From Oxalobacteraceae bacterium (lineage in GTDB: Bacteria > Pseudomonadota > Gammaproteobacteria > Burkholderiales > Burkholderiaceae_D): DNA of 46,825 nt. The translations under genes were made by a program, and so were the position numbers. Below, piece by piece: positions 9,366-46,825 of the stretch (position 1 is its first letter; each line of letters starts with the position of its first letter). The stretch lies in the NCBI GenBank assembly GCA_947464955.1, contig CANHZI010000010.1, positions 1-46,825 of the forward strand, read 5' to 3'. A model generated the notes under the pieces. The model was not told the DNA's origin. It did no database searches and saw only the letters and a list, made by a program, of their open reading frames with translations.

Positions 9366-9380
9366 ACTCTCTCAAATAAC

Positions 9381-10382: not shown

Positions 10383-10393
10383 AGAAGACCGGT

Positions 10394-11152: not shown

Positions 11153-11191
11153 CCAGCACATCCCTACGGTTAAACCTGAAGTGAAACCCCC

Positions 11192-12520: not shown

Positions 12521-12580
12521 GCAAGTGGCTCGTTGGAGTGGCGCTCAGTTCATCCGTTCTGTCTCTTGACAAAATCTCAG

Positions 12581-21769: not shown

Positions 21770-22172
21770 CATATTAGTTAGTGAGGTAATGCTAACTTTA
21801 GATCGAGCACCTTTGGTTCATGAAGAAGCTATCCTGAAAGAAGCGATGGAGGAAATGGGGCGAACCCGCCTCGGTATTGTTTGCGTTGTTGACGCTTATA
21901 AAAACCTTTTGGGCATATTAACGGATGGCGATATTCGTCGCAAGTTACTGAAGGTGCAGAAGCCGTTCTCGGCATTTTTGGTCGATGACGCCCTCGATCA
22001 TGCTATTCGTACGCCCACAACATCCAAACCCGATGACACACTTGTTTGTGCGGTTGAACTGATGGAAGAAAAACAAATCTGGGATTTGCCAGTAGTGTCT
22101 GACGAAGGAAAACTTGTTGGTTTGTTACATCTCCACCCGGCGGTGCAAGCTTTGTTGGGGATTGCGAAATAA
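21750..22172 (+). CDS. Stand-alone CBS-domain pair, KpsF/KdsD C-terminal-like
   Basis: A 140-residue protein starting at ATG 21750, with GGAGAAG as ribosome site. It is made only of two CBS motifs: VSEVMLTLDRAPLVHEEAIL with LLGILTDGDIRRKL, then TPTTSKPDDTLVCAVELMEE with VGLLHLHPAVQAL. TDGDIRR and LHLHP are typical of the CBS tail of arabinose-5-phosphate isomerases (KdsD/KpsF), but the SIS isomerase domain is absent and no remnant of it is present upstream. It may sense a nucleotide and regulate the overlapping KdsA-like enzyme, or be a scaffold. It overlaps the next gene by 1 nt (TAATG). Confidence 0.8.
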   Translation: MSTLKSNILVSEVMLTLDRAPLVHEEAILKEAMEEMGRTRLGIVCVVDAYKNLLGILTDGDIRRKLLKVQKPFSAFLVDDALDHAIRTPTTSKPDDTLVCAVELMEEKQIWDLPVVSDEGKLVGLLHLHPAVQALLGIAK

Positions 22173-23119: not shown

Positions 23120-23132
23120 GTAGGAAATTTAC

Positions 23133-23918: not shown

Positions 23919-23933
23919 TTTTTCTAAAAAAAC

Positions 23934-24716
23934 ATGAATAACTACCTAAATAAACTGTTCAATCTCGAAAGCAAGGTTGTCGTCATTACAGGTGCAGGAG
24001 GACATTTGTGCAGCGAAATGGCCCGCGGATTCGCTCGTGCAGGTTGCGCTGTCGCAGTTCTCGATGTACGCTTGGAAAAGGCTGTAGCTGTAGAACAGGA
24101 AATAAAATCAGAAGGATTTGACAAGGTTATATCGCTAGCCATCGACGTTGCTATAAAAGATCAGCATGTTACTGCCCTCGATGCCATCGTTGCCAAGTTT
24201 GGTCATGTTGATATCTTGGTGAATGGCGCCGGTATCAACGGACCAACTCCATTCTTTGACCTGTCGCTTGATGAGTGGTACTCAATTCTCGATTCCCAAC
24301 TAACCGGAACATTTCTAGGTTGCCAAGTGTTTGGTGAGTATATGGTGAAACGCGGGCAAGGGGCGGTTATCAACATTTCATCTGCCTCGGCCGGACCACC
24401 TCTGTCGAAGGCCTTTACCTATTCAATTGCCAAGGCTGGCATTCTTAACTTGACTCAGAATCTCGGACGTGAATGGGGAACTAAGGGAGTCCGAGTAAAT
24501 GCATTACGCCCTGGTTTCTTGCCAACGGATTGGAATCGGAAAAACTTCATTACGCCAGAGCGCGAAAATGCCATCTTAGGTCATACTCCTATGGCACGTT
24601 ATGGTAAACCGAGCGAATTGGTTGGAGCGACACTGTGGTTGGCCTCTGATGCGGCAAGCTTTGTGACCGGGGCAGAAGTTGCTGTAGATGGTGGCTTTTC
24701 GTGCATGACCATTTAA
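23934..24716 (+). CDS. Short-chain dehydrogenase/reductase (first of two)
   Basis: A 260-residue classical SDR: VVVITGAGGHLCSEMARGFA, DILVNGAGINGP, VINISSASAGPPLSKAFTYS with YSIAK giving YxxxK, VRVNALRPGFLPT, and the C-terminal TGAEVAVDGGFSC. The nucleotide loop is unusual: the common GxxxGIG reads GAGGHLC. Asp in AVLDVR (end of beta-2) favours NAD(H). Probably an oxidoreductase acting on a sugar carbon of the ulosonic acid or its precursor. It is followed 10 nt later by a second SDR; the two are clearly different sequences. Confidence 0.82.
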   Translation: MNNYLNKLFNLESKVVVITGAGGHLCSEMARGFARAGCAVAVLDVRLEKAVAVEQEIKSEGFDKVISLAIDVAIKDQHVTALDAIVAKFGHVDILVNGAGINGPTPFFDLSLDEWYSILDSQLTGTFLGCQVFGEYMVKRGQGAVINISSASAGPPLSKAFTYSIAKAGILNLTQNLGREWGTKGVRVNALRPGFLPTDWNRKNFITPERENAILGHTPMARYGKPSELVGATLWLASDAASFVTGAEVAVDGGFSCMTI

Positions 24717-24726
24717 GGTGACTGCT

Positions 24727-25476
24727 ATGAACATGAAAACTGTGGTAATCACTGGTGGCAATCGTGGTATTGGATTAAGTATCACAGAAGCTTTTGTGAA
24801 TGCGGGCTACTGGGTTTTCGTCGGAGCACGTAACGAATCCGATCTTGAAGCAAAATTTGGTGACAAGGTCACTTTTATTCCGACGGATGTGCGAAATGAC
24901 TCTGCCCATCGACACTTAGTGAAGCAGGCAATTGATGTGACCGGGCGCCTGGATGTATATATCAATAACGCGGGTTACTCTGAATGGCGTCCGATTGAAG
25001 AAATTGATGACCTCTTTCTTGACGATATTATTGCAACAAATCTTAAGGGTGCATTCTGGGGTTGCAAGGCTGCCCTGTCTGCAATGAAAGAGGGCGGGTG
25101 TATCATTAATATTTCTAGTATCGCTGGTAAGCGAGGCAGTCCAAACAACTCAGCGTACGTAGCGACCAAGTTTGCGATGAACGGGCTAACCCAGTCACTT
25201 GCTAAGGAAGTAGGCTCGCGAGGCATTCGTGTCAATGGTGTTTGTCCAGTTTTAATCCCGACCGATGGTTTGATAGAGGCGTTGAAAAGCCCTCATGGCC
25301 CAGCAAAAGGTGATGGTGCAGGATTCATTGCAAAGTTCGGGCTGGAAAACGCGGCACTTAAACGTCTGCCAACCGGGGCAGAAGTTGCTGCAATGTGTAT
25401 TTTCTTAGCCTCTGAGTCCTCGTCTGCCGTAACAGCCCAAAACATTAACGTCGATTGCGGCGTATTTCCTCAGTAA
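24727..25476 (+). CDS. Short-chain dehydrogenase/reductase (second of two)
   Basis: About 249 residues from ATG 24727 (AAGGTG ribosome site 5 nt upstream; an alternative GTG at 24718 is less likely). It has canonical TGGNRGIG, VYINNAGYSEW, IINISSIAGKRGSPNNSAYV with YVATK as YxxxK, IRVNGVCPVLIPTDG and the terminal NINVDCGVF. All catalytic residues are intact. Paired with the SDR before it, it could carry out an oxidation-reduction (epimerisation) at one carbon, a scheme known for SDR pairs, but this is inferred. Confidence 0.82.
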   Translation: MNMKTVVITGGNRGIGLSITEAFVNAGYWVFVGARNESDLEAKFGDKVTFIPTDVRNDSAHRHLVKQAIDVTGRLDVYINNAGYSEWRPIEEIDDLFLDDIIATNLKGAFWGCKAALSAMKEGGCIINISSIAGKRGSPNNSAYVATKFAMNGLTQSLAKEVGSRGIRVNGVCPVLIPTDGLIEALKSPHGPAKGDGAGFIAKFGLENAALKRLPTGAEVAAMCIFLASESSSAVTAQNINVDCGVFPQ

Positions 25477-25489
25477 TTTTGGAGTATTG

Positions 25490-26266
25490 ATGAAAATAGT
25501 AGCAGTGATCCCGGCGCACATGGCCTCAGTCAGGTTTCCAGGAAAGATTTTATTCCCATTCCACGGTTTGCCTATGATCGAGCATGTACGCCGTCGTGCA
25601 TTGATGTCAAAATCGGTCGCTGAGGTCATTGTGGCTACTTGCGACAATGAAATCGCATCAGCGATTCGTGGCTTTGGTGGCAAGGTTATCATGACAGCCA
25701 ACACCCATAAAAACGGTACAACACGGGTGGCCGAAGCTGTAAAGGCCTTAGATTGTTCCCATGTCATGTTGCTTCAGGGCGATGAACCCTTGTTATTGCC
25801 AAGGCACATTGATGCGTTTGCCAACGCAATAGAGGCCGATCCCAATGGAGATGCGTGGAACGCGACAGGTCCGATCGATCATCCAGATGAGCTGGATCGC
25901 CATTCGTTCGTGAAGTGCTCTGTAGATTCGATGGGTCGTATTTTATATTGTTTCCGCAGGTCACCGTGTTACACCAATTTCGATATACAGAAAAAATTCA
26001 TAATGAAAATTTTAGGAATCATTGCATATCGAAAAGAATTTCTGCTTGAAATTACCAAATTACCACCTTCTCCAATCGAGCAGGCGGAGTTTATTGAGCA
26101 AATGCGTATTATTGAAAATGGATACGTGATCCGTTCAGTCCCTGTAAATCCAAGTCTGCCATCCGTCAATGAACCTGAAGAAGCAAATGTAATATTGAAT
26201 TTTATTCAGTCTGACTATGAGCAACGAAATTTGTTGGAAAATGTTCTCACGCAATATAACACATAG
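25490..26266 (+). CDS. KdsB-like CMP-ulosonate cytidylyltransferase
   Basis: A 258-residue nucleotidyltransferase of the KdsB type, starting at ATG 25490 with GGAG about 6 nt upstream. Blocks: IPAHMASVRFPGKILF (CTP loop), VIVATCDN, GTTRVAEAV, VMLLQGDEPLLLP and KLPPSPIEQAEFIEQMRIIE with NGYVIRSVPV. KdsB activates Kdo as CMP-Kdo. Two places differ from the KdsB pattern I recall: the loop lacks the STRLPGK form, and the HIGIYAYR block reads ILGIIAYRKE, losing the His. Together with the altered KdsA motif this suggests a modified sugar substrate. It closes the seven-gene run that begins at 20879. Confidence 0.8.
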   Translation: MKIVAVIPAHMASVRFPGKILFPFHGLPMIEHVRRRALMSKSVAEVIVATCDNEIASAIRGFGGKVIMTANTHKNGTTRVAEAVKALDCSHVMLLQGDEPLLLPRHIDAFANAIEADPNGDAWNATGPIDHPDELDRHSFVKCSVDSMGRILYCFRRSPCYTNFDIQKKFIMKILGIIAYRKEFLLEITKLPPSPIEQAEFIEQMRIIENGYVIRSVPVNPSLPSVNEPEEANVILNFIQSDYEQRNLLENVLTQYNT

Positions 26267-29580: not shown

Positions 29581-29634
29581 CCCTGAATGACAATCCCATC
29601 GGTATTCCTTAAACTAAAAACTAGGAATACGACT

Positions 29635-30036
29635 ATGTATATGACTATGTCTTCAATAAGACCTAATCGGGTGGAAGTGGTCACCAGTGTTCAGTGCCGC
29701 AGGCGCTGGACTCCTGAACAAAAGCTTGAAATCGTCAAACAAACCAATGAACCAGGAAGCTCTGTATCTTTGGTAGCCCGACAGCATGGATTGACTGCAG
29801 CCCAGTTGTTTCAATGGCGCAAAGCTTATTCGGAAGGTTCTTTGGTCGCAGTTGGTGCCAATGAAACTGTCGTCCCGCCTTCTGAACTTCAAGAATCAAT
29901 GAGACGTATTAAACAACTTGAAGGTGCGCTTGGACGCAAGACTCTGGAGAACGAGATTCTCAAGGAGGCTGTGGACTTTGCCAAAGCAAAAAAGTGGATT
30001 GCGCGCTCGCCTGTATTGCCCGGGGACGAGCAATAA
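29635..30036 (+). CDS. IS2-like OrfA (InsC-type helix-turn-helix protein)
   Basis: About 133 residues from ATG 29635 (other ATGs at 29587, 29641 and 29647 are possible). [40 protein letters not shown] and the end [20 protein letters not shown] closely follow IS2 InsC. The frame contains A_AAA_AAG at 29988-29994, the slippery heptamer used by IS3-family elements for -1 frameshifting to make the OrfAB transposase. The frame appears intact. OrfA alone is a DNA-binding repressor-like product in the IS2 model. Confidence 0.82.
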
Positions 30037-30834
30037 GGGCGGTGTGCACGGCACTGGACGTATCGCGCAGCAACGTATTAACCAAGAAAACTCGATCCTC
30101 CGAATGGACTGATTTGAGAAAGTCACCACCCAAGGCCGATGACGCTGACCTGAAGGAGGCCATTGCCAGCGTGGTTAAAGACCGAGCAACATACGGTTAC
30201 AGGCGCGTTTGGGCTAGGCTGAAGATCGACGGCCGTCAGATTAATCACAAGCGGGTTTACAGGGTAATGCGCGATGAGGGCTGGCTGCTGTTCAGACAAG
30301 GTCAAAAGCCTTTGGACACGAGAAAGCATGAAGGCACAGTAGCGGTCAAGGAAAGCGACACGCGCTGGTGCTCAGATGGATTGGAACTATCGTGCGACAA
30401 CGGAGAACGCGTGAGGGTGGCATTTGCACTGGACTGCTGCGATAGGGAAATCATGAGCTGGGTGGCCACTACGAAAGGCATTGATGCAGGCTGTGGAGAA
30501 ACGATTCGGCTCAAACGGCAAGCCACCTAAAACGATTGAGTGGCTGACTGATAACGGCAGCTGTTACACAGCGACTGAGACAAGAAGCTTTGCCAAAGAA
30601 CTAGGTCTAAAGCCTGTGACAACACCCATCACAAGCCCCCGAAGTAACGGCATGGCTGAGAGCTTTGTGAAGACACTGAAACGGGACTATGCCAAGCTGG
30701 CTAATCGGCCAGATTCAAAAACCGTGATGGCTCAGTTGAAAGATTGGTTCGATGACTACAATTTTTATCACCCGCACAGTGCACTTGGCTACTTGCCACC
30801 AACGCTGTTAAGGGAGAAGAGATCGGTAACTTAA
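29994..30834 (+). pseudogene. IS2-like OrfB transposase, frameshifted/deleted
   Basis: Two frames together make an InsD-like integrase core. The first (GTG 29994 to 30530) has [32 protein letters not shown], then WCSDGLELSCDNGERV with the first catalytic Asp and FALDCCDREIMSW. The second (about 30481-30834) has AVEKRFGSN, WLTDNGSCYTATETR with the second Asp, and SNGMAESFVKTLKRDY with the catalytic Glu, ending NFYHPHSALGYLPP. Between TTKGID and MQAVEKRFG about ten residues usual for IS2 are missing and the frame changes (near 30480). Hence a small deletion inactivated the gene. Confidence 0.8.
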
Positions 30835-35193: not shown

Positions 35194-35805
35194 ATGAAAC
35201 GACTGTTCGATGTAGCAATAGCAATAATTGGTTTGCTCTTTCTCTCTCCCTTTTTACTTGTACTCTATTGGCAGGTCCATCGCAAACTCGGTGCGCCAGT
35301 TTTCTTTTACCAAGTACGCCCCGGACTAAACGGTCAGCCGTTTAAGATGCTTAAGTTCCGCACTATGACAAGCGAAATCGGTCCCGATGGCCAGATGTTA
35401 CCCGACGCCCTCCGCCTAACGCCCTTTGGACGCTTTTTGCGCGCCACTAGTCTTGACGAGTTGCCCGAGCTATGGAATGTGCTACGCGGCGAGATGAGCC
35501 TGGTGGGGCCGCGCCCTTTGCTCATGGAATATTTGCCGCTCTATTCGCCCGAGCAGGCCCGTCGCCACGAGGTGCTCCCGGGCATCACGGGTTGGGCGCA
35601 AGTCAATGGCCGCAACGCGATCAGCTGGGCCGAGAAATTTACGTTGGATGTTTGGTATGTGGATCACCGTAGCCTGTTGCTGGATGTGCGCATCTTGTGG
35701 ATGACAGTGCGCAAGGTGCTTGTGCGCGATGGCATCAGCGCAGCAGGGGAGGCGACGATGCCTGCATTCACGGGGTCAAAACCCTTAAAACAAGAAGACC
35801 TCTGA
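35194..35805 (+). CDS. Initiating sugar-phosphate transferase, PglC-like
   Basis: A 203-residue bacterial sugar transferase (small monotopic phosphoglycosyltransferase). One N-terminal hydrophobic hairpin (residues 4-27), then FFYQVRPGLNGQPFKMLKFR, RFLRATSLDELPELWNVLRG, MSLVGPRPLLMEYLPLYSPE and LPGITGWAQVNGRNAISWAE. The Asp-Glu pair of SLDELPE is the catalytic dyad of PglC-type enzymes. It transfers a UDP-bacillosamine-type sugar phosphate to undecaprenyl phosphate, starting repeat-unit assembly. It is the first gene of the run that makes the modified sugar. Its TGA overlaps the next ATG (TGATG). Confidence 0.88.
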   Translation: MKRLFDVAIAIIGLLFLSPFLLVLYWQVHRKLGAPVFFYQVRPGLNGQPFKMLKFRTMTSEIGPDGQMLPDALRLTPFGRFLRATSLDELPELWNVLRGEMSLVGPRPLLMEYLPLYSPEQARRHEVLPGITGWAQVNGRNAISWAEKFTLDVWYVDHRSLLLDVRILWMTVRKVLVRDGISAAGEATMPAFTGSKPLKQEDL

Positions 35806-36827
35806 TGAAAAAAATCTCTGCCCGTTTAAAAGACATTGCTGTGTTCTATCCCAGCATAGTGTTAGGTAACGATGAGTTGGCCGAACTTTACCCAGAATGG
35901 CACACGGATAAGATTTTTGAGAAAACAGGTATCAGGGAAAGGCCTGTTGCTGATCTTGGACAGACAGCAGGTGATTTGGCCTATGAGGCAGCCGAAAATC
36001 TTTTTGCTCAGGGTCAGATTGCAGCGGAGGATGTTGACTTCATCATTCTCTGTACGCAGGCTCCAGACTATGTGTTGCCCACAACTGCATGTGTTTTACA
36101 GGACCGTTTAGGTGTATCGCGGCAAGCTGGTGCGTTAGACATCAACTTAGGTTGTTCCGGCTTTGTCTATGGTTTGTCTCTGGCCAAAGGACTGATTGAA
36201 ACAGGGGCTGCGCGTTGTGTTTTGTTGCTCACTGCTGACACTTATTCCAAGTACATTCATCCAATGGATAAGAGTGTGCGTACGCTCTTTGGAGATGCAG
36301 CGGCGGCTACGGCCATTGTGGCAATAGAAGATGCTGATGTGGCGATTGGTCCGTTTGTCTTTGGAACAGATGGCAGTGGGGCAAAGAACTTGATCGTAGA
36401 GGCTGGTATGTTCCGTGTACCCAAATCGCCAGAGACAGCAAAAGAAATGACAGACGATTCGAGCAATGTTCGCACTCGAGAGAACTTGTACATGAACGGC
36501 GCTGAAGTCATGGCCTTTTCTCTGAAGGAAGTACCCAAGGCTGCAGATGCATTACTTTTAAAAGCAGGCAAGGCAAAAGAAGATATGGATTTCTTTGTGT
36601 TGCATCAGGCCAATAAGTTCATGCTCGAAGCATTGCGCAGGAAGTTAAAGGTGCCACAAGAGAAGTTGCCCATCTTGGTTGAAGACTGTGGCAATACAGT
36701 GTCTTCAACCATACCAATTGCATTGTTCAAGTTGCGTAAACAAGGACGATTGAGGCATGGCCATCAGCTCATGTTGATTGGGTTCGGTGTAGGTTACTCG
36801 TGGGCTGCGTGTTTAATGATTTTTTAA
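35805..36827 (+). CDS. Beta-ketoacyl-ACP synthase III-like (first of two)
   Basis: A 340-residue thiolase-fold enzyme starting at ATG 35805, overlapping the pglC stop. The catalytic triad is intact: Cys117 in INLGCSGFVYG, His267 in FVLHQANKF and Asn297 in EDCGNTVSS. C-terminal GFGVGYSWAA replaces the usual glycine-rich end. KAS III condenses acyl-CoA with malonyl-ACP. It is not a housekeeping FabH because an ACP and a second KAS III follow at once and the neighbours are sugar genes. It probably makes a short 3-ketoacyl-ACP for N-acylating a sugar. Confidence 0.85.
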   Translation: MKKISARLKDIAVFYPSIVLGNDELAELYPEWHTDKIFEKTGIRERPVADLGQTAGDLAYEAAENLFAQGQIAAEDVDFIILCTQAPDYVLPTTACVLQDRLGVSRQAGALDINLGCSGFVYGLSLAKGLIETGAARCVLLLTADTYSKYIHPMDKSVRTLFGDAAAATAIVAIEDADVAIGPFVFGTDGSGAKNLIVEAGMFRVPKSPETAKEMTDDSSNVRTRENLYMNGAEVMAFSLKEVPKAADALLLKAGKAKEDMDFFVLHQANKFMLEALRRKLKVPQEKLPILVEDCGNTVSSTIPIALFKLRKQGRLRHGHQLMLIGFGVGYSWAACLMIF

Positions 36828-36840
36828 ACTGGAGAAGATA

Positions 36841-37071
36841 ATGAGCGATTTTTTCGAAGGCATGGCCGAAATTTTTGAAGTGGAAGTCAGCAAAATTTCG
36901 TCCGAATTTGAGCTGCACTCTGGTGAGGCGGCGTGGGATTCTTTGGCCATTGTGTCAACCATCGCCCTGGCGGACGATTGCTTTAATGTGATGCTTGAAG
37001 GCAAGGCCTTGGAGGCTTGTCAGACGATCGCCGACATTGAGAAGTTGATTGCACAAGCCAAGAAAGCCTGA
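36841..37071 (+). CDS. Dedicated acyl carrier protein
   Basis: A 76-residue acidic four-helix protein. The phosphopantetheine site is Ser34 in AAWDSLAIVS. Helix II continues with TIALADDCF, and the C-terminal helix is ADIEKLIAQAKK. Starting after GGAGAAG, it lies between two KAS III genes and overlaps the second (TGATG region at 37069-37074). The length fits small ACPs, but the loop differs from the DSLD form of fatty-acid AcpP, fitting a pathway-specific carrier. Needs a holo-ACP synthase from elsewhere. Confidence 0.88.
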   Translation: MSDFFEGMAEIFEVEVSKISSEFELHSGEAAWDSLAIVSTIALADDCFNVMLEGKALEACQTIADIEKLIAQAKKA

Positions 37072-38135
37072 TGATGACATCTCAATCCACTTCCGTAGGA
37101 CGAAACATCAAGGTGACGGGGGCAGGTATTGCTGGTGTTGTGTCGTGCTTGCCTGAGCGGCAAGTTACCAATGCTCATTTTGAAGCCCAATTTGGAGAGT
37201 CTGCGGTCAAAGATGTTGTGAAAATGATCGGGGTTGAAAACAGATATTGGACTGACGATAAGACATCGACAAGAGACTTATGCTTGAAAGCCGGTCAGCA
37301 TCTGTTGACTCAGCTGGACTGGTTGCCTGAGTCCGTCGATGCGTTAATTTTTGTATCGCAAACACCTGATTACAGACTCCCAGCCACCGCTTGTGCTTTG
37401 CAAGCGGATCTTGGCTTGTTAACTACTTGTATCGCGTTTGATGTGAACCTGGGGTGCTCAGCTTACCCATATGCTTTGTGGCTGGGTATGACCATGGTGC
37501 AAGCAGGCGCGGCACATCGTGTGTTGTTGGCTGTGGGTGACACGATCAGCAAGATCGTTGATCCAACAGACCGTTCAACAGCCTTGTTGTTTGGCGACGC
37601 AGGCACTGTAACTGCCATTGAGGAGGCATCTGGGCAGAGTGCAAGTTTTGTGCTGGGTACAGATGGGCGGGGCGCTTGTAATTTGATTGTACCCAAGGGG
37701 GCGTTCAAGGATTACTCGCTGTCAGGTGATCCTCGCTTGCTGGATAAAGCATCGGATTGTCTGTACATGGATGGTGGTGAAATTTTCAATTTCACGCTCA
37801 AAGCCGTTCCAGTATTGGTCAATGAAACCATTGAACTTTCAGGGGTTGCAGCTGATGGACATGATGGATTTTTGTTTCATCAGGCCAATATGTTCATGCT
37901 GAAGCATTTGACTAAAAAATCCAAGTTGCCAGCCGAGAAAGCGCCGATCAATATTAATCAATATGGCAACACCAGTTGCGCTTCTATCCCCTTGTTGATG
38001 ACCACTTGCTTGCAGGACCAACTCCGCAATGGGCCGATGCTATTGGGTTTGTTTGGCTTTGGTGTGGGGTACTCATGGGCTGGCGCATCGCTTTCTGTGG
38101 GGCCATTGAAATGCGTGGAGACAATCAAATGCTGA
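37071..38135 (+). CDS. Beta-ketoacyl-ACP synthase III-like (second of two)
   Basis: A 354-residue KAS III (ATG 37071 or 37074). The triad is Cys129 in VNLGCSAYPYA, His270 in FLFHQANMF and Asn300 in NQYGNTSCAS, all present. Its sequence is clearly different from the first copy, so it is an old paralogue pair and not a recent duplication. The two may form a heterodimer, or act in successive condensations, or one may transfer an acyl chain. Its tail overlaps the SDR gene by 7 nt. Confidence 0.85.
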   Translation: MMTSQSTSVGRNIKVTGAGIAGVVSCLPERQVTNAHFEAQFGESAVKDVVKMIGVENRYWTDDKTSTRDLCLKAGQHLLTQLDWLPESVDALIFVSQTPDYRLPATACALQADLGLLTTCIAFDVNLGCSAYPYALWLGMTMVQAGAAHRVLLAVGDTISKIVDPTDRSTALLFGDAGTVTAIEEASGQSASFVLGTDGRGACNLIVPKGAFKDYSLSGDPRLLDKASDCLYMDGGEIFNFTLKAVPVLVNETIELSGVAADGHDGFLFHQANMFMLKHLTKKSKLPAEKAPININQYGNTSCASIPLLMTTCLQDQLRNGPMLLGLFGFGVGYSWAGASLSVGPLKCVETIKC

Positions 38136-38896
38136 ACATTTTCAAATCAGATGCATTGCAGGGCCGAATATACCTTGTGACGGGTGCGTCTTCAGGTATT
38201 GGTAAGGAAACAGCGGTACTTTTGTCCAAATGTGGCGCGCGGGTTATGATCAATGGGCGCGATGAAAGTCGCTTGCATGAAACGCTGGCTCAATTGTCGG
38301 GTGCCGGGCATTTGGCTTTTGCTGCACCGCTTGAAACAGTTGACCAAACAAACGATTGGCTCAAGAGCGTGTTTGAGTCTTCTGGGCCTTTGGATGGTGT
38401 ATTTCACTGCGCGGGTATTGAGTTGATTCGACCGGCTCGAATGATCAAACAGGCGCAGTTGAACGATGTGCTTGGTAGCAGCCTTTTTGCAGCCTTCGGC
38501 ATTGCGCGGGCTTTGAGTTCGAAAAATGCCATGGTCGATGGCGGTTCGCTTGTGTTCATGTCATCTGTTGCCGGTTCAACTGGACAAGTTGGCTTGTCGG
38601 CCTACAGCGCAGCTAAGGCTGCGATTGATGGAATGGTTCGTTCATTGGCCTGTGAACTGTCGGCTAAGAAAATTCGAGTGAATTCCATTGCGGCCGGTGC
38701 TGTCCACACGGCTATGCACGATCGACTGACCAAAAGCAGCGGTGACGATGCAACCACGGCCTATGAGCAGTCACATTTGCTTGGCTTTGGTGACCCACAA
38801 GATGTTGCCCAGGCAGCGCTGTACCTTTTGAGTCCAGCCAGTCGCTGGGTGACGGGTACGACGATGGTAGTTGATGGCGGATACATGGTGCGATGA
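38129..38896 (+). CDS. FabG-like short-chain dehydrogenase/reductase
   Basis: A 255-residue classical SDR from ATG 38129 (GGAG about 9 nt upstream; ATG 38111 is also in frame). YLVTGASSGIGKETAVL, GVFHCAGIELI, FMSSVAGSTGQVGLSAYSAA with YSAAK as YxxxK, IRVNSIAAGAVHTAM and VDGGYMV. Following KAS III-ACP-KAS III, a 3-ketoacyl-ACP reductase giving a 3-hydroxyacyl-ACP is the simplest role. The stop overlaps the next start (ATGATGA). Confidence 0.82.
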   Translation: MLNIFKSDALQGRIYLVTGASSGIGKETAVLLSKCGARVMINGRDESRLHETLAQLSGAGHLAFAAPLETVDQTNDWLKSVFESSGPLDGVFHCAGIELIRPARMIKQAQLNDVLGSSLFAAFGIARALSSKNAMVDGGSLVFMSSVAGSTGQVGLSAYSAAKAAIDGMVRSLACELSAKKIRVNSIAAGAVHTAMHDRLTKSSGDDATTAYEQSHLLGFGDPQDVAQAALYLLSPASRWVTGTTMVVDGGYMVR

Positions 38897-39528
38897 TGAC
38901 CGAGAGATTGATACTGGTTGGCGGTGGTGAATTCGGGCGGGAGTTGATCAACTGGACAGATGATCTGGCGGATCTGGGGAAAAGCATTCGGGTAACAGGG
39001 TTTCTGGACGACAACCCTGATGCCTTGAAAGGCTTTCAATACCCCGTGGCATATCTGGGTTCTATCCAATCGTATGTTCCGCAGCCAGGGGATAGCTTGC
39101 TGATGGCAGTGGGCAATCCTAAAGTTAAAAAAACACTCTTTGCAGACATGAAATTGAGGGGTTGTCATTTTTCAACTTTGATTCATCCCTCTGCTGTCGT
39201 TGCTAGGACTGCAAGATTTGGTGAAGGCGTTGTTGTGTGTCCTCAGGCACTTATTTCTGCGGATGCAACGGTTGGCGATTTGTGCGCAATCAATGGCAGC
39301 GCCAGTGTGGGGCACGACGTTAAGTTGGGTAGCTTTGCAACTTTGAGCGCACACGTGGACTTGACGGGGTGGGTTCAAGTCGATGAGTGTGTATTTTTTG
39401 GAAGCGGTGCGCGTGTTTTGCCCAAAGTAAAAATTGGGACTGGCGCGCGCATTGGTGCTGGCGCCGTTGTGATGCGTTCTGTACCTGCCGATGCTGTGGT
39501 TTATGCGCCGCCTGCTAAAAGGCTTTGA
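38893..39528 (+). CDS. PglD/NeuD-like sugar N-acyltransferase
   Basis: A 211-residue protein with the PglD plan: an N-terminal Rossmann-like part (LILVGGGEFGRELINW, GFLDDNPDAL, LLMAVGNPKV) and a C-terminal left-handed beta-helix (STLIHPSAVVARTARFGEGV, GSASVGHDVKLGSFATLSAH with the catalytic His, VFFGSGARVLPKVKIGTGAR). PglD acetylates the C4 amine of UDP-4-amino sugars with acetyl-CoA. Next to a dedicated ACP pathway it may instead accept the specialised acyl chain. ATG 38893 or 38896. Confidence 0.82.
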   Translation: MMTERLILVGGGEFGRELINWTDDLADLGKSIRVTGFLDDNPDALKGFQYPVAYLGSIQSYVPQPGDSLLMAVGNPKVKKTLFADMKLRGCHFSTLIHPSAVVARTARFGEGVVVCPQALISADATVGDLCAINGSASVGHDVKLGSFATLSAHVDLTGWVQVDECVFFGSGARVLPKVKIGTGARIGAGAVVMRSVPADAVVYAPPAKRL

Positions 39529-39529
39529 T

Positions 39530-40537
39530 ATGGACCTTGGAACTAAGCTGTTTCAGAAATATTGGCATATGGTGTGCCATCGCAACGAACTACCAAGCGA
39601 TGGTGACTTTTTGCGGTTCAAGACGCCGATTGGTCATGTGGTGGTTTTCAATGATGGCGGTGATTACGTTGTCTTTGATAACCGATGCGCGCACCGTGGT
39701 ACCTCAATTTATCTGACGGATTTTGGCAATCAGAGCAATACCTGCAAATACCACGGCTGGACATTCAAATCAGGCAAGTTGATTATTCCAACTGTTGAGC
39801 AGTTCAAGGGCTGTGATATCTCCAAAGCAGATCTGAGGCAGTACAGGCTTGATTGGTGCGGTGACTTTTTGTTCTTTGGGGTTGCACCAGAGAAAGACCT
39901 CTACGAACAGCTGGATGGGGTCGCTCAGTACATCGAGAATATTTCATTCAATATCAGTGGCAGAGTCGATTTAAGTGCGTACGAGTACGAGTGTGCATGG
40001 CCCTTGGCACTTGAGAATGCGCTTGAGCCCTATCACATTGGTATGGTGCACCCAGGTACGTTGGCCAACTTGAAACTCGAAGATGGTGTGAATACTTTCC
40101 ATGGCGCGAACTCCGTTTGGCAAGCGCCGGTAGGTGATGTCAGGATCAAGAAACAACTTGGAAAACTTGGCTCGTTCTTCAACATCGACTATGCATATGA
40201 AGGTTACATGAGCATTTTCATGTTCCCCTTCACAATGATTTCGTCAACCTTTGGCTATTCCTATTCTGTACAGAATTTCTTTCCGCATCAGACCAGAAAC
40301 GATCGAACAAATTTCATGAGTCGTTTGCTGACATGCAATGTGAAAGATGAGCATGCCCAGAAAATTGTTCAGCCTTTCTTTGATTCAAGTGCCAAATTGA
40401 ATCGTATGGTGTTCGAAGAAGACCATGCGATTTGCAAGATCATGCCCACTGATTCGTGGAGCCCAGAACCACTTGAGTTCATCTCCGAGCAGGAAGTAAA
40501 GATTGCCCACTTCCGTGACTTGTGTCGAGCCGGCTGA
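39530..40537 (+). CDS. Rieske non-heme iron oxygenase
   Basis: A 335-residue oxygenase alpha-subunit-like protein starting at ATG 39530, 1 nt after the previous stop. The Rieske [2Fe-2S] ligands are Cys53 and His55 (NRCAHRGTS) and Cys72 and His75 (TCKYHGWTF). The mononuclear iron site is in LENALEPYHIGMVH with His169 and His174. The C-terminal part is the catalytic domain. No ferredoxin or reductase gene is present in the window, so electrons must come from elsewhere. Within the sugar-acyl module it may hydroxylate or desaturate the acyl chain or oxidise the sugar. A Rieske protein is unusual in a polysaccharide locus. Confidence 0.88.
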   Translation: MDLGTKLFQKYWHMVCHRNELPSDGDFLRFKTPIGHVVVFNDGGDYVVFDNRCAHRGTSIYLTDFGNQSNTCKYHGWTFKSGKLIIPTVEQFKGCDISKADLRQYRLDWCGDFLFFGVAPEKDLYEQLDGVAQYIENISFNISGRVDLSAYEYECAWPLALENALEPYHIGMVHPGTLANLKLEDGVNTFHGANSVWQAPVGDVRIKKQLGKLGSFFNIDYAYEGYMSIFMFPFTMISSTFGYSYSVQNFFPHQTRNDRTNFMSRLLTCNVKDEHAQKIVQPFFDSSAKLNRMVFEEDHAICKIMPTDSWSPEPLEFISEQEVKIAHFRDLCRAG

Positions 40538-40560
40538 AATAATTTTTGATTGGGATAGTA

Positions 40561-41778
40561 ATGCTGAATACTAAGTTTTCCCCCTGGCCTAGTTTCACCC
40601 CCGAAGAGGCCGATGCGGTGCACCGCGTGGTGATGTCCAACAAGGTGAACTATTGGACAGGCACCGAGACCCGTGCTTTTGAAAAAGAGTTTGCCGCTTG
40701 GTGTGGCACGGCGCACGCCGTGGCGCTGGCCAATGGCACGCTGGCACTGGATGTGGCGCTGAAAGCCTTGGGCATTGGCCCGGGGGACGAGGTGGTGGTG
40801 ACACCGCGCACCTTCATTGCTTCGATTTCGTGTGTGGTCAATGCGGGGGCGGTGCCGGTGTTTGCGGATGTTGAGGCTGATTCGGGGAATTTTTCAGCAC
40901 GCACGATCGCTGCAGTTTTGACACCTCGCACGCGGGCGGTGATTTGCGTGCATTTGGCGGGTTGGCCGTGCGACATGGACCCGATCATGGCGCTGGCTGA
41001 GCAGCATGGTTTTAAGGTGATCGAGGATTGCGCGCAGGCGCATGGGGCGCGTTACAAGGGGCTGCCTGTGGGCAGCATTGGCCATGTCGGAGCCTGGAGT
41101 TTTTGCCAGGACAAGAACATGACCACGGGCGGCGAGGGTGGCATGGTGACGACGAATGATGAGGCGTTGTGGCGGGCGATGTGGTCGTTTAAAGACCATG
41201 GCAAGAGTTATGAGGCGGTGTATGAACGTGAGCACGCGCCAGGCTTCCGGTGGCTGCATGAGAGTTTTGGCACCAATTGGCGCATGCTGGAGATGCAGGC
41301 CGTGATTGGGCGCATTCAATTGCAGCGTTTGCCTGAGTGGTCCGCTGCGCGCAAACGCAATGCCGAGGCGGTATGGGCGGCGTGCCATGAGTTTTCTGCG
41401 CTTCGGGTGCCTCAGATCAAGTGCGCCAGTTGCCCAGGCAATTGCAAGGCTGCTGGTGCTAACTGTGATCATGCGAATTACAAGTGTTATGTATATGTAC
41501 AGCCAGAGCGTTTGGCAGCAGGGTGGACTCGTGACCGAATCATTGAGGCGATCAATTCTGAAGGTGTGCCATGCTATCAAGGCAGTTGCAGCGAGGTTTA
41601 TTTGGAGAAAGCCTTTGATGACACAGGGTGGCGTCCGCAGGATCGTTTGCCGGTTGCCAAAGCTCTGGGAGAAACGAGCGTGATGTTTTTGGTGCATCCC
41701 ACGTTGATTGAACCGGAGATAGCGAAAACCTGTGAAGCCATCAAGATGGTCATGACTGAAGCCAGTAACGCAAGTTAA
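40561..41778 (+). CDS. DegT-family aminotransferase, PglE-like
   Basis: A 405-residue PLP aminotransferase from ATG 40561. It has NKVNYWTGTETRAFEKEF, ALANGTLALDVALKALGIGP, VIEDCAQAHGARYKG and the catalytic lysine in FCQDKNMTTGGEGG. A Cys-rich insertion (CASCPGNCK...CDHANYKCYVYV) is characteristic of the subgroup that aminates UDP-4-keto-6-deoxy-GlcNAc in bacillosamine pathways. It would use the PglF product. GC content rises here relative to the acyl module. Confidence 0.85.
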   Translation: MLNTKFSPWPSFTPEEADAVHRVVMSNKVNYWTGTETRAFEKEFAAWCGTAHAVALANGTLALDVALKALGIGPGDEVVVTPRTFIASISCVVNAGAVPVFADVEADSGNFSARTIAAVLTPRTRAVICVHLAGWPCDMDPIMALAEQHGFKVIEDCAQAHGARYKGLPVGSIGHVGAWSFCQDKNMTTGGEGGMVTTNDEALWRAMWSFKDHGKSYEAVYEREHAPGFRWLHESFGTNWRMLEMQAVIGRIQLQRLPEWSAARKRNAEAVWAACHEFSALRVPQIKCASCPGNCKAAGANCDHANYKCYVYVQPERLAAGWTRDRIIEAINSEGVPCYQGSCSEVYLEKAFDDTGWRPQDRLPVAKALGETSVMFLVHPTLIEPEIAKTCEAIKMVMTEASNAS

Positions 41779-41920: not shown

Positions 41921-42949
41921 GTGAATGCATACAAAACAGTACTGGTTACGGGAGGTGCCGGCTACATCAGCTCTCATGCCACCCTGGCGCTGTTGCAGGC
42001 GGGCTTTGACTTGGTGGTGCTGGACAACCTGTGCAACGCATCCGCTGAGTCGCTGCGGCGCGTGGCTCAGTTGTCTGGGCGGGCCCCTGTGTTTGTGCAA
42101 GGCGACATTCGCGACCGTGCCCTGCTGGACCATCTGCTGGCCCAGCACTGGGTGCAGGCCGTGCTGCATTTTGCTGGTCCAAAAGCTGTGGGCGAAAGCT
42201 TGGCTCAGCCGCTGTCCTACTACAGCAACAACGTGGGCGGCACCGTTAACCTGTGCCAGGCCATGGCAGCGGCGAGTGTGTTTACGCTTTTGTTTAGTTC
42301 GTCGGCCACCGTTTACGGCGACTCGGCCACCGTTTCCATTACCGAAGACCAGCCGTTGGGCCAAATCACTAACCCCTATGGGCGCAGCAAGTTCATGGTG
42401 GAGCAGTTGCTAGGCGACATAGTCGCGTCTGACAAGCGCTGGCGTGTGGCGCTGCTTCGATACTTCAATCCGGTGGGTGCGCACGAAAGCGGCCAGATAG
42501 GCGAAGACCCCAACGGGATTCCCAACAACCTGTTGCCCTTTGTGGCCCAGGTGGCCGTTGGCCAGAGTCCCGAACTGGCGGTATTTGGTCACGATTACCC
42601 CACATTGGATGGAACCGGAGTAAGCGACTACATCCACGTTGTGGACCTAGCCGAAGGCCACTTGGCGGCGCTAAAAGCGATATATAGCTGTCCCGGAATG
42701 GAGGTCTGGAGCCTTGGCACCGGCAATGGCTACAGCGTGCTGCAGTTGGTGCGCGCCTTTGAAGCCGCCAGCGGGCGCCACGTGCCTTACCGCCTAGCCG
42801 AGCGCCGCCCCGGCGACGTGGCCACTTGCTATGCCCATCCTGGCAAAGCCGCAGCCGAACTAAACTGGATCTCAAAGCGGGACCTTCACAGCATCATGCG
42901 CGACGCCTGGCGTTGGCAGTCTCAGAACCCGGATGGTTATCGTGGATGA
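41921..42949 (+). CDS. galE: UDP-glucose/UDP-GlcNAc 4-epimerase GalE, with altered NAD motif
   Basis: A 342-residue GalE: VLVTGGAGYISSHA, VVLDNLCN, VLHFAGPKAVGESL, LLFSSSATVYGD (catalytic Ser), NPYGRSKFMVEQ (YxxxK), YFNPVGAHESG and DYIHVVDLAEGH. The glycine-rich loop, normally GAGYIGSH, reads GAGYISSH: codon 17 is AGC at 41969-41971. Everything else appears intact. It may supply UDP-galactose or UDP-GalNAc for the repeat unit. The start is GTG 41921. The 142-nt gap before it shows nothing recognisable. Confidence 0.88.
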   Translation: MNAYKTVLVTGGAGYISSHATLALLQAGFDLVVLDNLCNASAESLRRVAQLSGRAPVFVQGDIRDRALLDHLLAQHWVQAVLHFAGPKAVGESLAQPLSYYSNNVGGTVNLCQAMAAASVFTLLFSSSATVYGDSATVSITEDQPLGQITNPYGRSKFMVEQLLGDIVASDKRWRVALLRYFNPVGAHESGQIGEDPNGIPNNLLPFVAQVAVGQSPELAVFGHDYPTLDGTGVSDYIHVVDLAEGHLAALKAIYSCPGMEVWSLGTGNGYSVLQLVRAFEAASGRHVPYRLAERRPGDVATCYAHPGKAAAELNWISKRDLHSIMRDAWRWQSQNPDGYRG

Positions 42950-43005: not shown

Positions 43006-45057
43006 ATGAGTGAAACCATGATCCGCACCTTGAGCCGTTTTGCAGCACCGGCTTTGGCGCTGCCACGTGCAGTCAAGCGCGGTGTTGTGCTTGCCCTGGA
43101 TGCCGCACTTTGCATTTTGTCTGTATGGCTGGCTTTTTACCTACGCAGTGGCAGTTTCACGCCTTTGTCTGGTCCAGCCATTTGGCCCGTTATGGCGTCT
43201 GTGGTGTTGGCGTTGCCGATTTTCATTACTTCAGGCCTTTACCGGGCTATCTTCCGCTACAGCGGCGTGCCAGCCATGGTGGCTGTGGGGCGAGCCATGC
43301 TGTTGTATGGCTTGGCATTTGCAGCTATTTTTACTTTATGGGGTGTGGATGATGTGCCGCGCACGGTGGGCTTGATTCAACCCATGCTTTTGCTTCTCTT
43401 GGTGGGGGCTTCGCGCGCTGCGGCGCGGGTTTGGTTGGGCGGGCTGTATCGCCAGCAGCTGCGCAAGGCGTCTTTGCCTCAGACACTCATCTACGGTGCT
43501 GGCAGTGCCGGGCGGCAATTGGCCTCGGCCATGGCCACCAGCCCAGAGATTTGGGTGGTGGGCTTTCTGGACGATGACGATCGGCTGCATGGCCACTTGA
43601 TTAATGGCTTGCCGATCTACAACCCTGCCGACTTGGCCGAGGTGTTAAGCATCTACCCCATCACCAACGTGCTCCTAGCCCTCCCCAGTGTGTCGCGCCA
43701 GCGGCGTAACGAGATTTTGAATGCGCTCAAACCGCATAGGTTGGCGGTGCGAACCTTTCCAGGCCTGAGCGACATTGCCACCGGCAAGGTGAGCCTCAGC
43801 GATGTGCGCGAGCTGGACATTGACGACCTGTTGGGCCGCGAACCCGTCAAGCCCAACGGCCTGCTGCTCAACCTGAACACCCATGGCAAAACTGTGCTGG
43901 TTACGGGGGCGGGGGGGAGCATTGGCAGCGAGCTGTGCCGCCAGATCATCAAGACCAACCCCAAGCAGCTGCTGTTGGTGGAGATGAGTGAGTTTGCGCT
44001 TTACCAGATTCACCAGGAACTGCAAGTGGCTCTGGCGGGCGAACGTCTGAGCGTGAACGAGTCGGTGGAGGGCGCTGCCCCTTATGCGCCTGTGGTGGGT
44101 GACGGGCCAGACATCGAAATCGTTCCCTTGTTGGCATCGGTGTGCGATGAAGTGCGCATGCACGAGATCATGGACACCTGGAAGCCGCACACGTTTTACC
44201 ACGCGGCCGCCTACAAGCATGTGCCCCTGGTAGAGCACAACCCAGCCGAAGGTGTTCGTAACAATGTGTGGGGCACCCGGGTGTGTGCCGAGGCCGCCAT
44301 GCGCAGCAGCGTGCGCAACTTTGTGCTGGTGAGCACCGACAAAGCCGTGCGCCCCGCCAACATCATGGGTGCAACCAAACGGCTTGCAGAGATGGTGTTG
44401 CAAGCCCTGGCCGAGGTGAATGCGGCAGTGGCTGCCCAAGGGGGCAGGGCGCCCACTGCCAGAACGACATTCAGTATTGTGCGCTTTGGCAACGTGTTGG
44501 GCTCCAGTGGATCGGTTGTGCCCTTGTTCCGCGAGCAGATCAAAAACGGCGGCCCGATTACCCTGACGCATACCGACATCACCCGCTACTTCATGACCAT
44601 CCCCGAGGCGGCGCAGCTGGTGATACAGGCCGGTGCCATGGGGCAGGGGGGCGATGTGTTTGTTTTGGACATGGGTCAGCCCGTCAAGATCATCGACCTG
44701 GCCCGCCGCATGGTGGAGTTGTCGGGCATGACGGTGCGCGACGAGCTGAACCCCGCTGGCGACATTGAGCTCACGGTGACGGGCTTGCGCCCCGGAGAAA
44801 AGCTCTACGAAGAGCTGCTGATTGGCGACAACCCCAAGCCCACCCAGCATGCACGCATCATGAAGGCGCATGAGCAGTTCTTGAGCTGGCCGCTGCTGGA
44901 GCAAAAGCTTAATGCCCTGAGCATTGCCATGAGCGTGAACGACGTGCCGGTTATCCGGGGCCAATTGCAAGAGTTGGTGTCGGGTTATGTACCCAGCGGC
45001 GAGGTGGTCGACTGGGTGCACATGGCGCTGGAGCGTGAAGTGCTGGCCAACGAATAA
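43006..45057 (+). CDS. pglF: Membrane UDP-GlcNAc 4,6-dehydratase PglF/WbpM/CapD-type
   Basis: About 683 residues from ATG 43006 (TTG 42979 also possible). Four hydrophobic segments occur in the first 150 residues. A first Rossmann fold (LIYGAGSAGRQLA) follows. Then a catalytic SDR domain carries TGAGGSIGSELC (near 300), HAAAYKHVPLVEHNPAEGV and VSTDKAVRPANIMGATKRLA. The usual SDR Tyr is Met in IMGATK, which is the norm for PglF/WbpM/FlaA1-like long dehydratases. RFGNVLGSSGSVVPLF and LRPGEKLYEELL are typical. It makes UDP-4-keto-6-deoxy-GlcNAc for bacillosamine-type sugar synthesis. Together with pseB the locus has two 4,6-dehydratases of opposite stereochemical class. Confidence 0.9.
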   Translation: MSETMIRTLSRFAAPALALPRAVKRGVVLALDAALCILSVWLAFYLRSGSFTPLSGPAIWPVMASVVLALPIFITSGLYRAIFRYSGVPAMVAVGRAMLLYGLAFAAIFTLWGVDDVPRTVGLIQPMLLLLLVGASRAAARVWLGGLYRQQLRKASLPQTLIYGAGSAGRQLASAMATSPEIWVVGFLDDDDRLHGHLINGLPIYNPADLAEVLSIYPITNVLLALPSVSRQRRNEILNALKPHRLAVRTFPGLSDIATGKVSLSDVRELDIDDLLGREPVKPNGLLLNLNTHGKTVLVTGAGGSIGSELCRQIIKTNPKQLLLVEMSEFALYQIHQELQVALAGERLSVNESVEGAAPYAPVVGDGPDIEIVPLLASVCDEVRMHEIMDTWKPHTFYHAAAYKHVPLVEHNPAEGVRNNVWGTRVCAEAAMRSSVRNFVLVSTDKAVRPANIMGATKRLAEMVLQALAEVNAAVAAQGGRAPTARTTFSIVRFGNVLGSSGSVVPLFREQIKNGGPITLTHTDITRYFMTIPEAAQLVIQAGAMGQGGDVFVLDMGQPVKIIDLARRMVELSGMTVRDELNPAGDIELTVTGLRPGEKLYEELLIGDNPKPTQHARIMKAHEQFLSWPLLEQKLNALSIAMSVNDVPVIRGQLQELVSGYVPSGEVVDWVHMALEREVLANE

Positions 45058-46165: not shown

Positions 46166-46825
46166 TTACTTCAAGCCAGCCGCCGCACGCAGTGTGGCGG
46201 CCTGGTTTGTGCGTTCCCATGTGAAGTTAGGTTCATCACGGCCAAAGTGGCCATAAGTCGCTGTCTTGCTGTAGATGGGGCGCAACAGGTCAAGCATTTG
46301 AATGATGCCCTTTGGACGCAGGTCAAAGTGCTCATGCACCAAGGCTGCAATCTTGTCGTCAGAGATCACACCAGTGCCTTCGGTGTTGATGGTGATGTTC
46401 ATGGGACGGGCCACACCAATGGCGTAAGCCACTTGAATTTGGCACTTGGTAGCCAAACCAGCCGCCACAATGTTCTTGGCCACATAACGAGCTGCATAAG
46501 CTGCAGAGCGGTCAACTTTCGATGGGTCTTTGCCTGAGAAGGCACCGCCGCCGTGAGGGCAAGCACCGCCATAAGTGTCCACAATGATCTTGCGACCTGT
46601 TAAGCCGCAATCGCCCTGAGGACCACCAATCACAAAGCGGCCTGTGGGGTTGATCAGGTACTTGGTGTCTTGCAGCCACTCTTTGGGCAACACGGGCTTG
46701 ATGATCTCTTCAATGATGGCTTCATTGAAGCTGGCCTTCATCTTGGTAGACGATTCGCTTTGATCGGGGCTGTGCTGAGTCGACAACACCACGGTGTCAA
46801 TGCTGTGGGGCTTGCCATCGACATA
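46166..46825 (-). CDS. metK: S-adenosylmethionine synthetase MetK, C-terminal part
   Basis: The - strand frame is open to the right edge, so the N-terminal part is outside; 219 residues are visible. It has [58 protein letters not shown] and [20 protein letters not shown], the invariant MetK signature, and ends [20 protein letters not shown]. It makes SAM from methionine and ATP. It is a housekeeping gene marking the right border of the polysaccharide locus. Confidence 0.97.

What the first reader, a model, noticed from the sequence alone, without database searches (positions are those of the whole stretch)
35805..41778. KAS III - ACP - KAS III - SDR - PglD-like - Rieske oxygenase - PglE-like module for a custom N-acyl sugar
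Seven consecutive genes combine a private mini fatty-acid pathway with the acyltransferase and aminotransferase of a bacillosamine-type sugar. KAS III plus FabG-like SDR on a dedicated ACP would give a 3-hydroxyacyl-ACP, and the PglD-like enzyme could transfer it to the 4-amino sugar. A related logic is known for the 3-hydroxybutyryl-viosamine of Pseudomonas syringae flagellin. The Rieske oxygenase and the paired KAS III proteins extend this to something not described to my knowledge.
Basis: partly seen in the sequence, partly recalled or inferred. Interest (0 to 1): 0.82.

Follow-up and report, generated by a model that had tools for sequence, protein, structure and literature searches.

The report
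Acyl-decorating gene cassette with Rieske oxygenase
Seven neighbouring genes appear to build a small hydroxylated fatty acid and hang it on an unusual bacterial surface sugar; most of the set resembles a published pathway, but it carries an extra oxygenase that travels with the acyl genes and probably adds one more oxygen.

Summary
In detail: all seven genes are at the stated coordinates and intact. Two ketoacyl synthases on a private ACP are already described: in the Flavobacterium psychrophilum O-antigen locus, wfpC-G (two synthases, ACP, reductase, PglD homologue) are credited with the 3,5-dihydroxyhexanoyl group seen by NMR on Qui2NAc4N (PMC6519341). The aminotransferase is closest to Pcryo_0638, a proven UDP-QuiNAc4N enzyme. 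What I did not find in print is the Rieske oxygenase. It follows the PglD-like gene in 21 of 22 distinct cassettes; of the 17 found by synthase rather than Rieske similarity in 294 family genomes, 16 have it, and all 17 Rieske orthologues there, own included, lie in a cassette. Sugar genes change (VioA in 16 of 22, PglC/PglE in 4) while the Rieske stays with the acyl genes. Best reading: 3,5-dihydroxyhexanoyl-ACP is made, the Rieske adds a third oxygen, PglD attaches the group. No chemistry was shown here; homology to WfpC-G was not tested. New variant of a known kind. The contig is probably Limnohabitans-like and misbinned.

The parts
35194..35805 (+). PglC-like polyprenyl-phosphate sugar-1-phosphate transferase (first sugar to lipid carrier; role inferred)
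   Evidence: PF02397 8.5e-63; homologue beside the cassette also in L007, L008, L009
35805..36827 (+). KAS III-1 (beta-ketoacyl-ACP synthase III type)
   Evidence: PF08541/PF08545 over cut-off; C117, H267, N297 invariant in 21 rows; nearest solved chain 3gwa, 6.8e-152
36841..37071 (+). Dedicated acyl carrier protein, presumed phosphopantetheine serine S34 (DSL)
   Evidence: NF002150 1.3e-4, below its cut-off; W32-D33-S34-L35-A36 invariant in 22 rows
37071..38135 (+). KAS III-2 (second beta-ketoacyl-ACP synthase III type)
   Evidence: PF08541/PF08545 over cut-off; C129, H270, N300 invariant in 22 rows; nearest solved chain 4efi, 2.1e-150
38129..38896 (+). FabG-like short-chain dehydrogenase (3-ketoacyl-ACP reductase; substrate inferred)
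   Evidence: PF13561 8.3e-49; S146, Y159, K163 invariant in 22 rows
38893..39528 (+). PglD/NeuD/VioB-family left-handed beta-helix N-acyltransferase
   Evidence: TIGR03570 193.4 bits, over cut-off; VioB 7txp 2.2e-25; H98 and H141 invariant in 22 rows
39530..40537 (+). Rieske non-haem iron oxygenase, 335 aa, proposed acyl hydroxylase
   Evidence: PF00355 and PF00848 over cut-off; C53, H55, C72, H75, H169, H174, D298 invariant in 21 of 21; next to the PglD-like gene in 21 of 22 cassettes
40561..41778 (+). PLP aminotransferase, UDP-4-keto-QuiNAc to UDP-QuiNAc4N (Pcryo_0638/PglE function, by similarity)
   Evidence: DegT 1.5e-90; 7l7x = Pcryo_0638, 1.5e-183
41921..42949 (+). GalE-type epimerase (role in this sugar not established)
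   Evidence: TIGR01179 4e-129, over cut-off
43006..45057 (+). PglF/WbpM-like UDP-GlcNAc 4,6-dehydratase
   Evidence: PF02719 8.4e-117 (scanned from 43009); homologue downstream of the cassette also in L007 and L008

Best explanation
The genes are a portable N-acyl cassette plus the sugar genes it serves. PglF-like and Pcryo_0638-like enzymes make UDP-QuiNAc4N. On the private ACP, one KAS III condenses an acetyl primer with malonyl-ACP and the FabG-like SDR reduces the product to 3-hydroxybutyryl-ACP; the other KAS III extends that by two carbons and the SDR reduces it again, giving 3,5-dihydroxyhexanoyl-ACP, in line with what is proposed for wfpC-F of F. psychrophilum. The Rieske oxygenase adds one oxygen, most likely as a hydroxyl on the acyl chain (on ACP or after transfer to the UDP-sugar), so the predicted N-4 substituent is a trihydroxyhexanoyl group. 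The PglD-like enzyme makes the amide and the PglC-like transferase puts the sugar on the lipid carrier. Shown here: gene content, conserved catalytic residues, conserved order, association with the acyl genes rather than the sugar genes. Inferred: every chemical step, the steps of the chain, which KAS acts first, and the site of oxidation.
For: Same gene functions as wfpC-G, whose polymer carries 3,5-dihydroxyhexanoyl on Qui2NAc4N by NMR. P. syringae, with one KAS III, makes a C4 group; F. psychrophilum, with two synthases, a C6 group. Both KAS keep Cys-His-Asn, the ACP its Ser, the SDR Tyr/Lys, the Rieske all cluster and iron ligands. In 22 distinct cassettes 21 have the Rieske directly after PglD; seven of these were first met through the Rieske or are the window itself, but of the 17 other cassettes met through KAS2, 16 have it. 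All 17 Rieske orthologues (42-100% identity, own included) in 294 family genomes lie in a cassette. The Rieske keeps to KAS/ACP/SDR/PglD whether VioA (16 of 22) or PglC/PglE (4 of 22) is beside it. Rank correlation of pairwise identities over 19 cassettes, Rieske with KAS2 0.89, PglD 0.81, SDR 0.78, KAS1 0.61, ACP 0.54. One single-contig genome (G858) has the cassette without the Rieske and no close copy elsewhere, as expected of a tailoring enzyme. Aminotransferase match to a proven UDP-QuiNAc4N enzyme.
Against: No F. psychrophilum sequence could be reached, so the link to WfpC-G rests on described functions; the figure with the gene order was not seen. No product is known. None of the ten proteins scanned in and around the cassette is a Rieske reductase; the own assembly has two FAD_binding_6 matches on other contigs, not examined. 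Thirteen of 18 more divergent loci carry a distant Rieske (23-28%), seven of them with one KAS-like gene and two SDRs, so the oxygenase is not tied to a C6 chain. KAS III proteins can act as acyltransferases (recalled), so two KAS need not mean two extensions. The rank correlations partly reflect shared phylogeny. In L009 the Rieske differs in history from its neighbours.
Confidence: 0.55

Rival explanations
1. The cassette makes a C4 group: only one KAS III extends, the other primes, edits or transfers the acyl chain; the Rieske oxidises the C4 unit (for example to dihydroxybutyryl).
For: P. syringae, with one KAS III, ACP, KR and VioB, makes 3-hydroxybutyryl. Seven of 18 divergent loci have one KAS-like gene, two SDRs and a distant Rieske.
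Against: Both KAS keep the Cys-His-Asn triad in every row used (21 and 22 rows), and the two-synthase system with a known product is C6.
Confidence: 0.17
2. The Rieske acts on the sugar or on nitrogen (for example on the 4-amino group or the 6-deoxy carbon), not on the acyl chain.
For: Rieske oxygenases can be N-oxygenases (recalled: PrnD). The nearest solved relatives are aryl dioxygenases and carnitine monooxygenase, at only about 3e-15, so the substrate is open.
Against: The gene stays with the acyl genes beside two different sets of sugar genes; a sugar-acting enzyme would have to accept both nucleotide sugars, one with a 2-acetamido group.
Confidence: 0.15
3. The Rieske supplies one of the two ordinary hydroxyls, so that the product is still dihydroxyhexanoyl, or it desaturates the chain.
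For: Only one SDR for two reductions; Rieske enzymes can desaturate (recalled).
Against: F. psychrophilum is described with one reductase gene (wfpF) and makes dihydroxyhexanoyl; the words oxygenase and Rieske do not occur in that paper's main text.
Confidence: 0.1
4. The region is a decayed or silent transferred block.
For: The contig looks foreign to its assembly, and a TnpA-like gene lies upstream (29587-30036).
Against: All seven frames are open with the expected catalytic residues, and L007 and L008 keep KAS1 to Rieske at 86-95% protein identity.
Confidence: 0.03

Closest known systems
wfpC-wfpG of the Flavobacterium psychrophilum O-polysaccharide locus (PMC6519341; abstract and passages seen, not the figures or supplement)
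   Same: Two 3-ketoacyl-ACP synthases, an ACP, a ketoacyl-ACP reductase and a PglD homologue, with pglE/pglF and a PglC homologue; C6 dihydroxyacyl on Qui2NAc4N
   Different: No oxygenase mentioned in the main text; other phylum; type of synthase and gene order not seen; sequences not compared here
Viosamine island of Pseudomonas syringae (vioA, vioS, vioR, acp, vioB, vioM, vioT; PMC3927599, passages seen)
   Same: Private ACP, KAS III, reductase and acyltransferase on a 4-amino-6-deoxysugar
   Different: One KAS III, C4 acyl, dTDP-viosamine, a methyltransferase, no oxygenase among its seven ORFs
Flagellin locus of Burkholderia glumae plasmid pBGF3 (NZ_DQ996271)
   Same: KAS III, ACP, second KAS match, SDR, acetyltransferase, Rieske in the same order
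   Different: VioA and flagellin genes instead of PglC/PglE; the second KAS matches in two pieces and has no gene in the (incomplete) PLSDB gene table
Pcryo_0638/Pcryo_0637 of Psychrobacter cryohalolentis (PMC8040287, abstract and passages seen)
   Same: UDP-QuiNAc4N aminotransferase (7l7x, 1.5e-183)
   Different: Its N-acyltransferase uses acetyl-CoA; no ACP set or Rieske in the passages seen
CMP-Neu5Ac hydroxylase (recalled, no call)
   Same: Rieske-type iron enzyme hydroxylating the N-acyl group of a sugar nucleotide
   Different: Other substrate and organisms; not compared by sequence here

Membership tests
wfpC-G-type dihydroxyhexanoyl cassette | Two ketoacyl-ACP synthases, one ACP, one reductase and a PglD homologue together | tested here: met
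   against the description
wfpC-G-type dihydroxyhexanoyl cassette | Sequence homology to WfpC-WfpG | not testable with these tools
wfpC-G-type dihydroxyhexanoyl cassette | 3,5-dihydroxyhexanoyl on N-4 of Qui2NAc4N | not testable with these tools
   Needs NMR or MS of the glycan
UDP-QuiNAc4N (bacillosamine) sugar pathway | 4,6-dehydratase and C-4 aminotransferase of the right type | tested here: met
   PF02719 8.4e-117; 7l7x 1.5e-183, enzyme proven in PMC8040287; activity of the window proteins not tested
PglD/NeuD/VioB acyltransferase family | TIGR03570 over its cut-off | tested here: met
   193.4 bits against 160.8
PglD/NeuD/VioB acyltransferase family | Acetyl-CoA as donor | not tested
   Acyl-ACP as donor is inferred from the neighbouring ACP
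Rieske non-haem iron oxygenase | CxH...CxxH cluster ligands and two-His-one-carboxylate iron site | tested here: met
   C53, H55, C72, H75, H169, H174, D298 in 21 of 21; D298 as third ligand is by motif and recall
Rieske non-haem iron oxygenase | Fold | tested here: inconclusive
   AlphaFold model from six sequences, mean pLDDT 35.4, unusable
Viosamine island | VioA-type aminotransferase and a single KAS III | tested here: not met
   The window block has two KAS III and a Pcryo_0638-type aminotransferase

The most novel reading that the evidence does not exclude
A Rieske oxygenase is a standing component of a bacterial N-acyl-sugar cassette and hydroxylates a 3,5-dihydroxyhexanoyl chain, giving a trihydroxyhexanoyl group (not found on a bacterial glycan) that bacteria place either on dTDP-Qui4N for flagellin or on UDP-QuiNAc4N for polysaccharide. 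Qui4N carrying it weighs 291.13 Da per residue (582.6 Da, average mass, for two), the same nominal mass as the incompletely identified flagellin glycan reported for Burkholderia pseudomallei (291.1 Da; 582.4 Da as 2 x 291; review PMC3958885). Against this: the review says that glycan contains acetyl, formic acid and possibly acetamidino groups, Neu5Ac has the same nominal mass (291.095), and I did not show that the species carries the cassette.
Probability: 0.4. Interest if true: 0.7.

Novelty: new variant of a known kind. Interest (0 to 1): 0.55.

Why it matters
N-acyl groups on 4-amino-6-deoxysugars help to set the antigenicity of O-antigens and flagella. If the reading is right, the acyl part is a swappable cassette whose length follows the number of ketoacyl synthase genes and whose oxidation follows a Rieske gene, so that acyl groups could be predicted from sequence. 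It makes sharp mass predictions for harmless freshwater bacteria and would add glycan acyl groups to the substrates of bacterial Rieske oxygenases.

Tried and rejected
Structure prediction of the Rieske protein (window plus five named relatives, alignment A1) gave mean pLDDT 35.4, so no fold search was made. Telling which KAS primes and which extends from FabH-type residues failed: the tryptophan of KAS1 lies beside a four-residue gap in the alignment with the assembly's own FabH, so I make no claim. The order-wide Rieske search found only the own genome in 399 at E <= 1e-30; only 12 other genomes of the family were in that draw, so the family-wide search carries the argument. The phylum search (398 genomes, E <= 1e-20) gave the own gene and six matches of 26-32%; five of the six cover only residues 6 to 195 of 335. 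KAS relatives on an Azospirillum plasmid and two Parabacteroides plasmids lie in other sets without an annotated Rieske; the Azospirillum record H28 has a 26% Rieske near a KAS and two SDRs. None was pursued. PADLOC gave nothing for four proteins. A 16S test of kinship failed: one of six genomes had a match, not the own. Paper searches: (23 papers, 20 listed; 13 papers, 10 listed) gave none whose title bears on a Rieske protein in glycosylation; several hold the words and were not opened. One search gave 5, one search gave 8, none on bacterial glycans by title; two of the four phrases were too exact to be a fair test.

L052 was not counted as a cassette: its 60% KAS2 stands apart from a divergent set. 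L061 is cut by its contig end and L054 has KAS1 after the Rieske; both are in the 22. For the KAS1 residues L061, and for the KAS2 residues L084, were dropped, and L052 was left in the KAS2 rows. The rank correlations used 19 cassettes with all six genes; L058, L061 and L084 were left out. Of 38 family genomes with a KAS2 match I fetched 32 of the 37 other than the own; G698, G739, G756, G817 and G846 were not read.

Full report
WHAT IS THERE. KAS III-1 starts at 35805, sharing one base with the stop of the PglC-like gene; KAS III-2, SDR and PglD-like overlap their upstream neighbours, and the other gaps between the seven genes are 13, 1 and 23 bases, so one transcription unit is likely (inference). 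Profile searches support each assignment; the ACP is weak by profile, below its cut-off, but has the WDSLA motif, invariant in 22 cassette ACPs. Downstream lie GalE and a PglF/WbpM-like dehydratase; upstream a GT4, a GT2 and a protein of 433 aa without Pfam match that could be a polymerase (that label is inference).

WHAT IS ALREADY KNOWN. They are not. For the F. psychrophilum O-polysaccharide, Cisar and colleagues (PMC6519341; abstract and passages of Results and Discussion seen) assign wfpC and wfpE (3-ketoacyl-ACP synthases), wfpD (ACP), wfpF (reductase) and wfpG (PglD homologue) to the 3,5-dihydroxyhexanoyl group on Qui2NAc4N, found by NMR; wfpB is a PglC homologue. The passages do not say KAS III, I did not see the gene map, and the assignment there is a prediction from genes. 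A 3,5-dihydroxyhexanoyl group is also reported for V. cholerae O3 (PMC3210612, passages). P. syringae, with one KAS III gene, makes a C4 group (PMC3927599, passages). So chain length follows the number of synthase genes in two published cases; that is a pattern of two, not a rule.

THE SUGAR. The window aminotransferase matches PDB 7l7x at 1.5e-183, next best 1.3e-53. 7l7x is Pcryo_0638, shown to be the aminotransferase of the UDP-2,4-diacetamido-2,4,6-trideoxy-D-glucose pathway (PMC8040287, abstract and passages). With the PglF-like and PglC-like genes this supports UDP-QuiNAc4N as acceptor.

THE RIESKE GENE. Five named genomes came from the genome-contig scan with the Rieske protein and B. 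glumae from plasmids, found by both KAS2 and Rieske. KAS2 matched in 38 of 294 family genomes. In the maps there are 22 distinct cassettes: window; L007-L011; L084; L049-L051, L053-L061, L063-L065. The order KAS1-ACP-KAS2-SDR-PglD holds in 21 of 22 (L054 has KAS1 after the Rieske; L061 is cut within KAS1; L084 has KAS2 in two pieces). The Rieske follows PglD in 21 of 22. To avoid the bias of finding loci by their Rieske: of the 17 cassettes other than the own that came from the KAS2 search, 16 have it. The exception, L058 (G858), is a single-contig genome whose best match anywhere is 31% over residues 6-183 at 2e-7. Asked the other way, 18 of 294 family genomes have a Rieske at E <= 1e-25; 17, own included, have 42-100% identity and all lie in a cassette, while the eighteenth (G720, 27%) lies in a stretch with a divergent set. 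The cluster and iron ligands are invariant in 21 of 21.

ACYL OR SUGAR? VioA lies on the same stretch in 16 of 22 cassettes, 14 of those with a match to the TPR glycosyltransferase-like protein of B. glumae and 9 with flagellin; PglC and PglE lie there in 4 of 22 (window, L007, L008, L009); neither is seen in L053 and in the truncated L061. So the sugar genes change while KAS/ACP/SDR/PglD/Rieske stay. DNA identity of L007 and L008 to the window is 91.7-94.3% from ACP to Rieske, 80.8-84.9% for KAS1, 76.6-87.6% for the aligned part of the aminotransferase, 68.7-77.0% for the aligned part of PglC and 70.8-73.5% for the best PglF piece. In L009 the Rieske is 89.9% identical while ACP, KAS2, SDR and PglD are 70.5-80.1%, which suggests that the Rieske also recombines on its own. 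This favours action on the acyl group but does not prove it. Against a tie to C6 chains: 13 of 18 more divergent loci (L066-L083) carry a distant Rieske (23-28%) on the stretch, seven with one KAS-like gene and two SDRs.

THE ORGANISM. The assembly is placed in the genus of U. squillarum (G910, called same genus, has the contig length of L011), but the contig seems foreign. Its end carries part of metK, 82-83% identical in DNA to Limnohabitans lacus and the genomes of L007 and L009 but 75-77% to three Undibacterium genomes; the assembly has a second metK on C45 that is nearer Undibacterium (76.5-78.2%) than the three others (72.3-74.1%). At protein level the signal is weak: 90-92% against 88-90%, and 85% to C45. 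Tetranucleotide correlation of four contig pieces is higher with Limnohabitans than with the assembly's own contigs in all four, but lower than either genome's own stretches are with each other. A misbinned Limnohabitans-like contig is the simplest reading; transfer is not excluded.

MECHANISM AND MASSES. Predicted: acetyl primer, two rounds of KAS plus SDR on the private ACP, oxidation by the Rieske, amide formation by PglD. Calculated residue masses: QuiNAc4N with dihydroxyhexanoyl 332.158, with one more oxygen 348.153; Qui4N 275.137 and 291.132. The last equals in nominal mass the flagellin glycan reported for B. pseudomallei in a review (the original paper was not held), where the fragment interpretation does not obviously fit; it may be coincidence. 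That 3gwa, the nearest solved chain to KAS1, comes from that species is recalled, not from a call.

VERDICT. A known kind of cassette, correctly spotted, with an added, conserved and, as far as the open-licence library shows, undescribed oxygenase.

Noticed in passing
window 46166-46792 and whole contig: Partial metK at the contig end is nearer Limnohabitans in DNA, and the assembly has another metK on C45; the contig is probably misbinned.
   Followed up: partly
window 5407-15370: Pseudaminic-acid-type set: PseB, PseC, PseG and PseI models over cut-off, with a NeuB-like gene (below cut-off) and a PRK06209 aminomutase-like gene between them.
   Followed up: no
window 20879-26266: Kdo-like set inside a polysaccharide locus: KdsA and a KdsB-type cytidylyltransferase over cut-off, a CBS protein, an HpcH/HpaI aldolase and two SDR-like genes.
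   Followed up: no
window 29587-30530: TnpA-like gene of IS2 type at 29587-30036 (NF006928, 1.2e-44, below its cut-off); the ORF at 29994-30530 after it was not scanned.
   Followed up: no
L084 17474-18545: In the B. glumae pBGF3 record the second KAS matches in two pieces and has no gene in the (incomplete) table, while its neighbours do.
   Followed up: no
L058 about 7840-8030: A single-contig genome keeps the cassette beside VioA and flagellin but has lost, or never had, the Rieske.
   Followed up: yes
L066-L083: Distant Rieske proteins (23-28%) recur on stretches with divergent KAS/SDR sets in 13 of 18 loci, so oxygenases may be common in such acyl cassettes.
   Followed up: no
window 41422-41466: The aminotransferase has a cysteine-rich stretch at about residues 288-302; not examined.
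   Followed up: no
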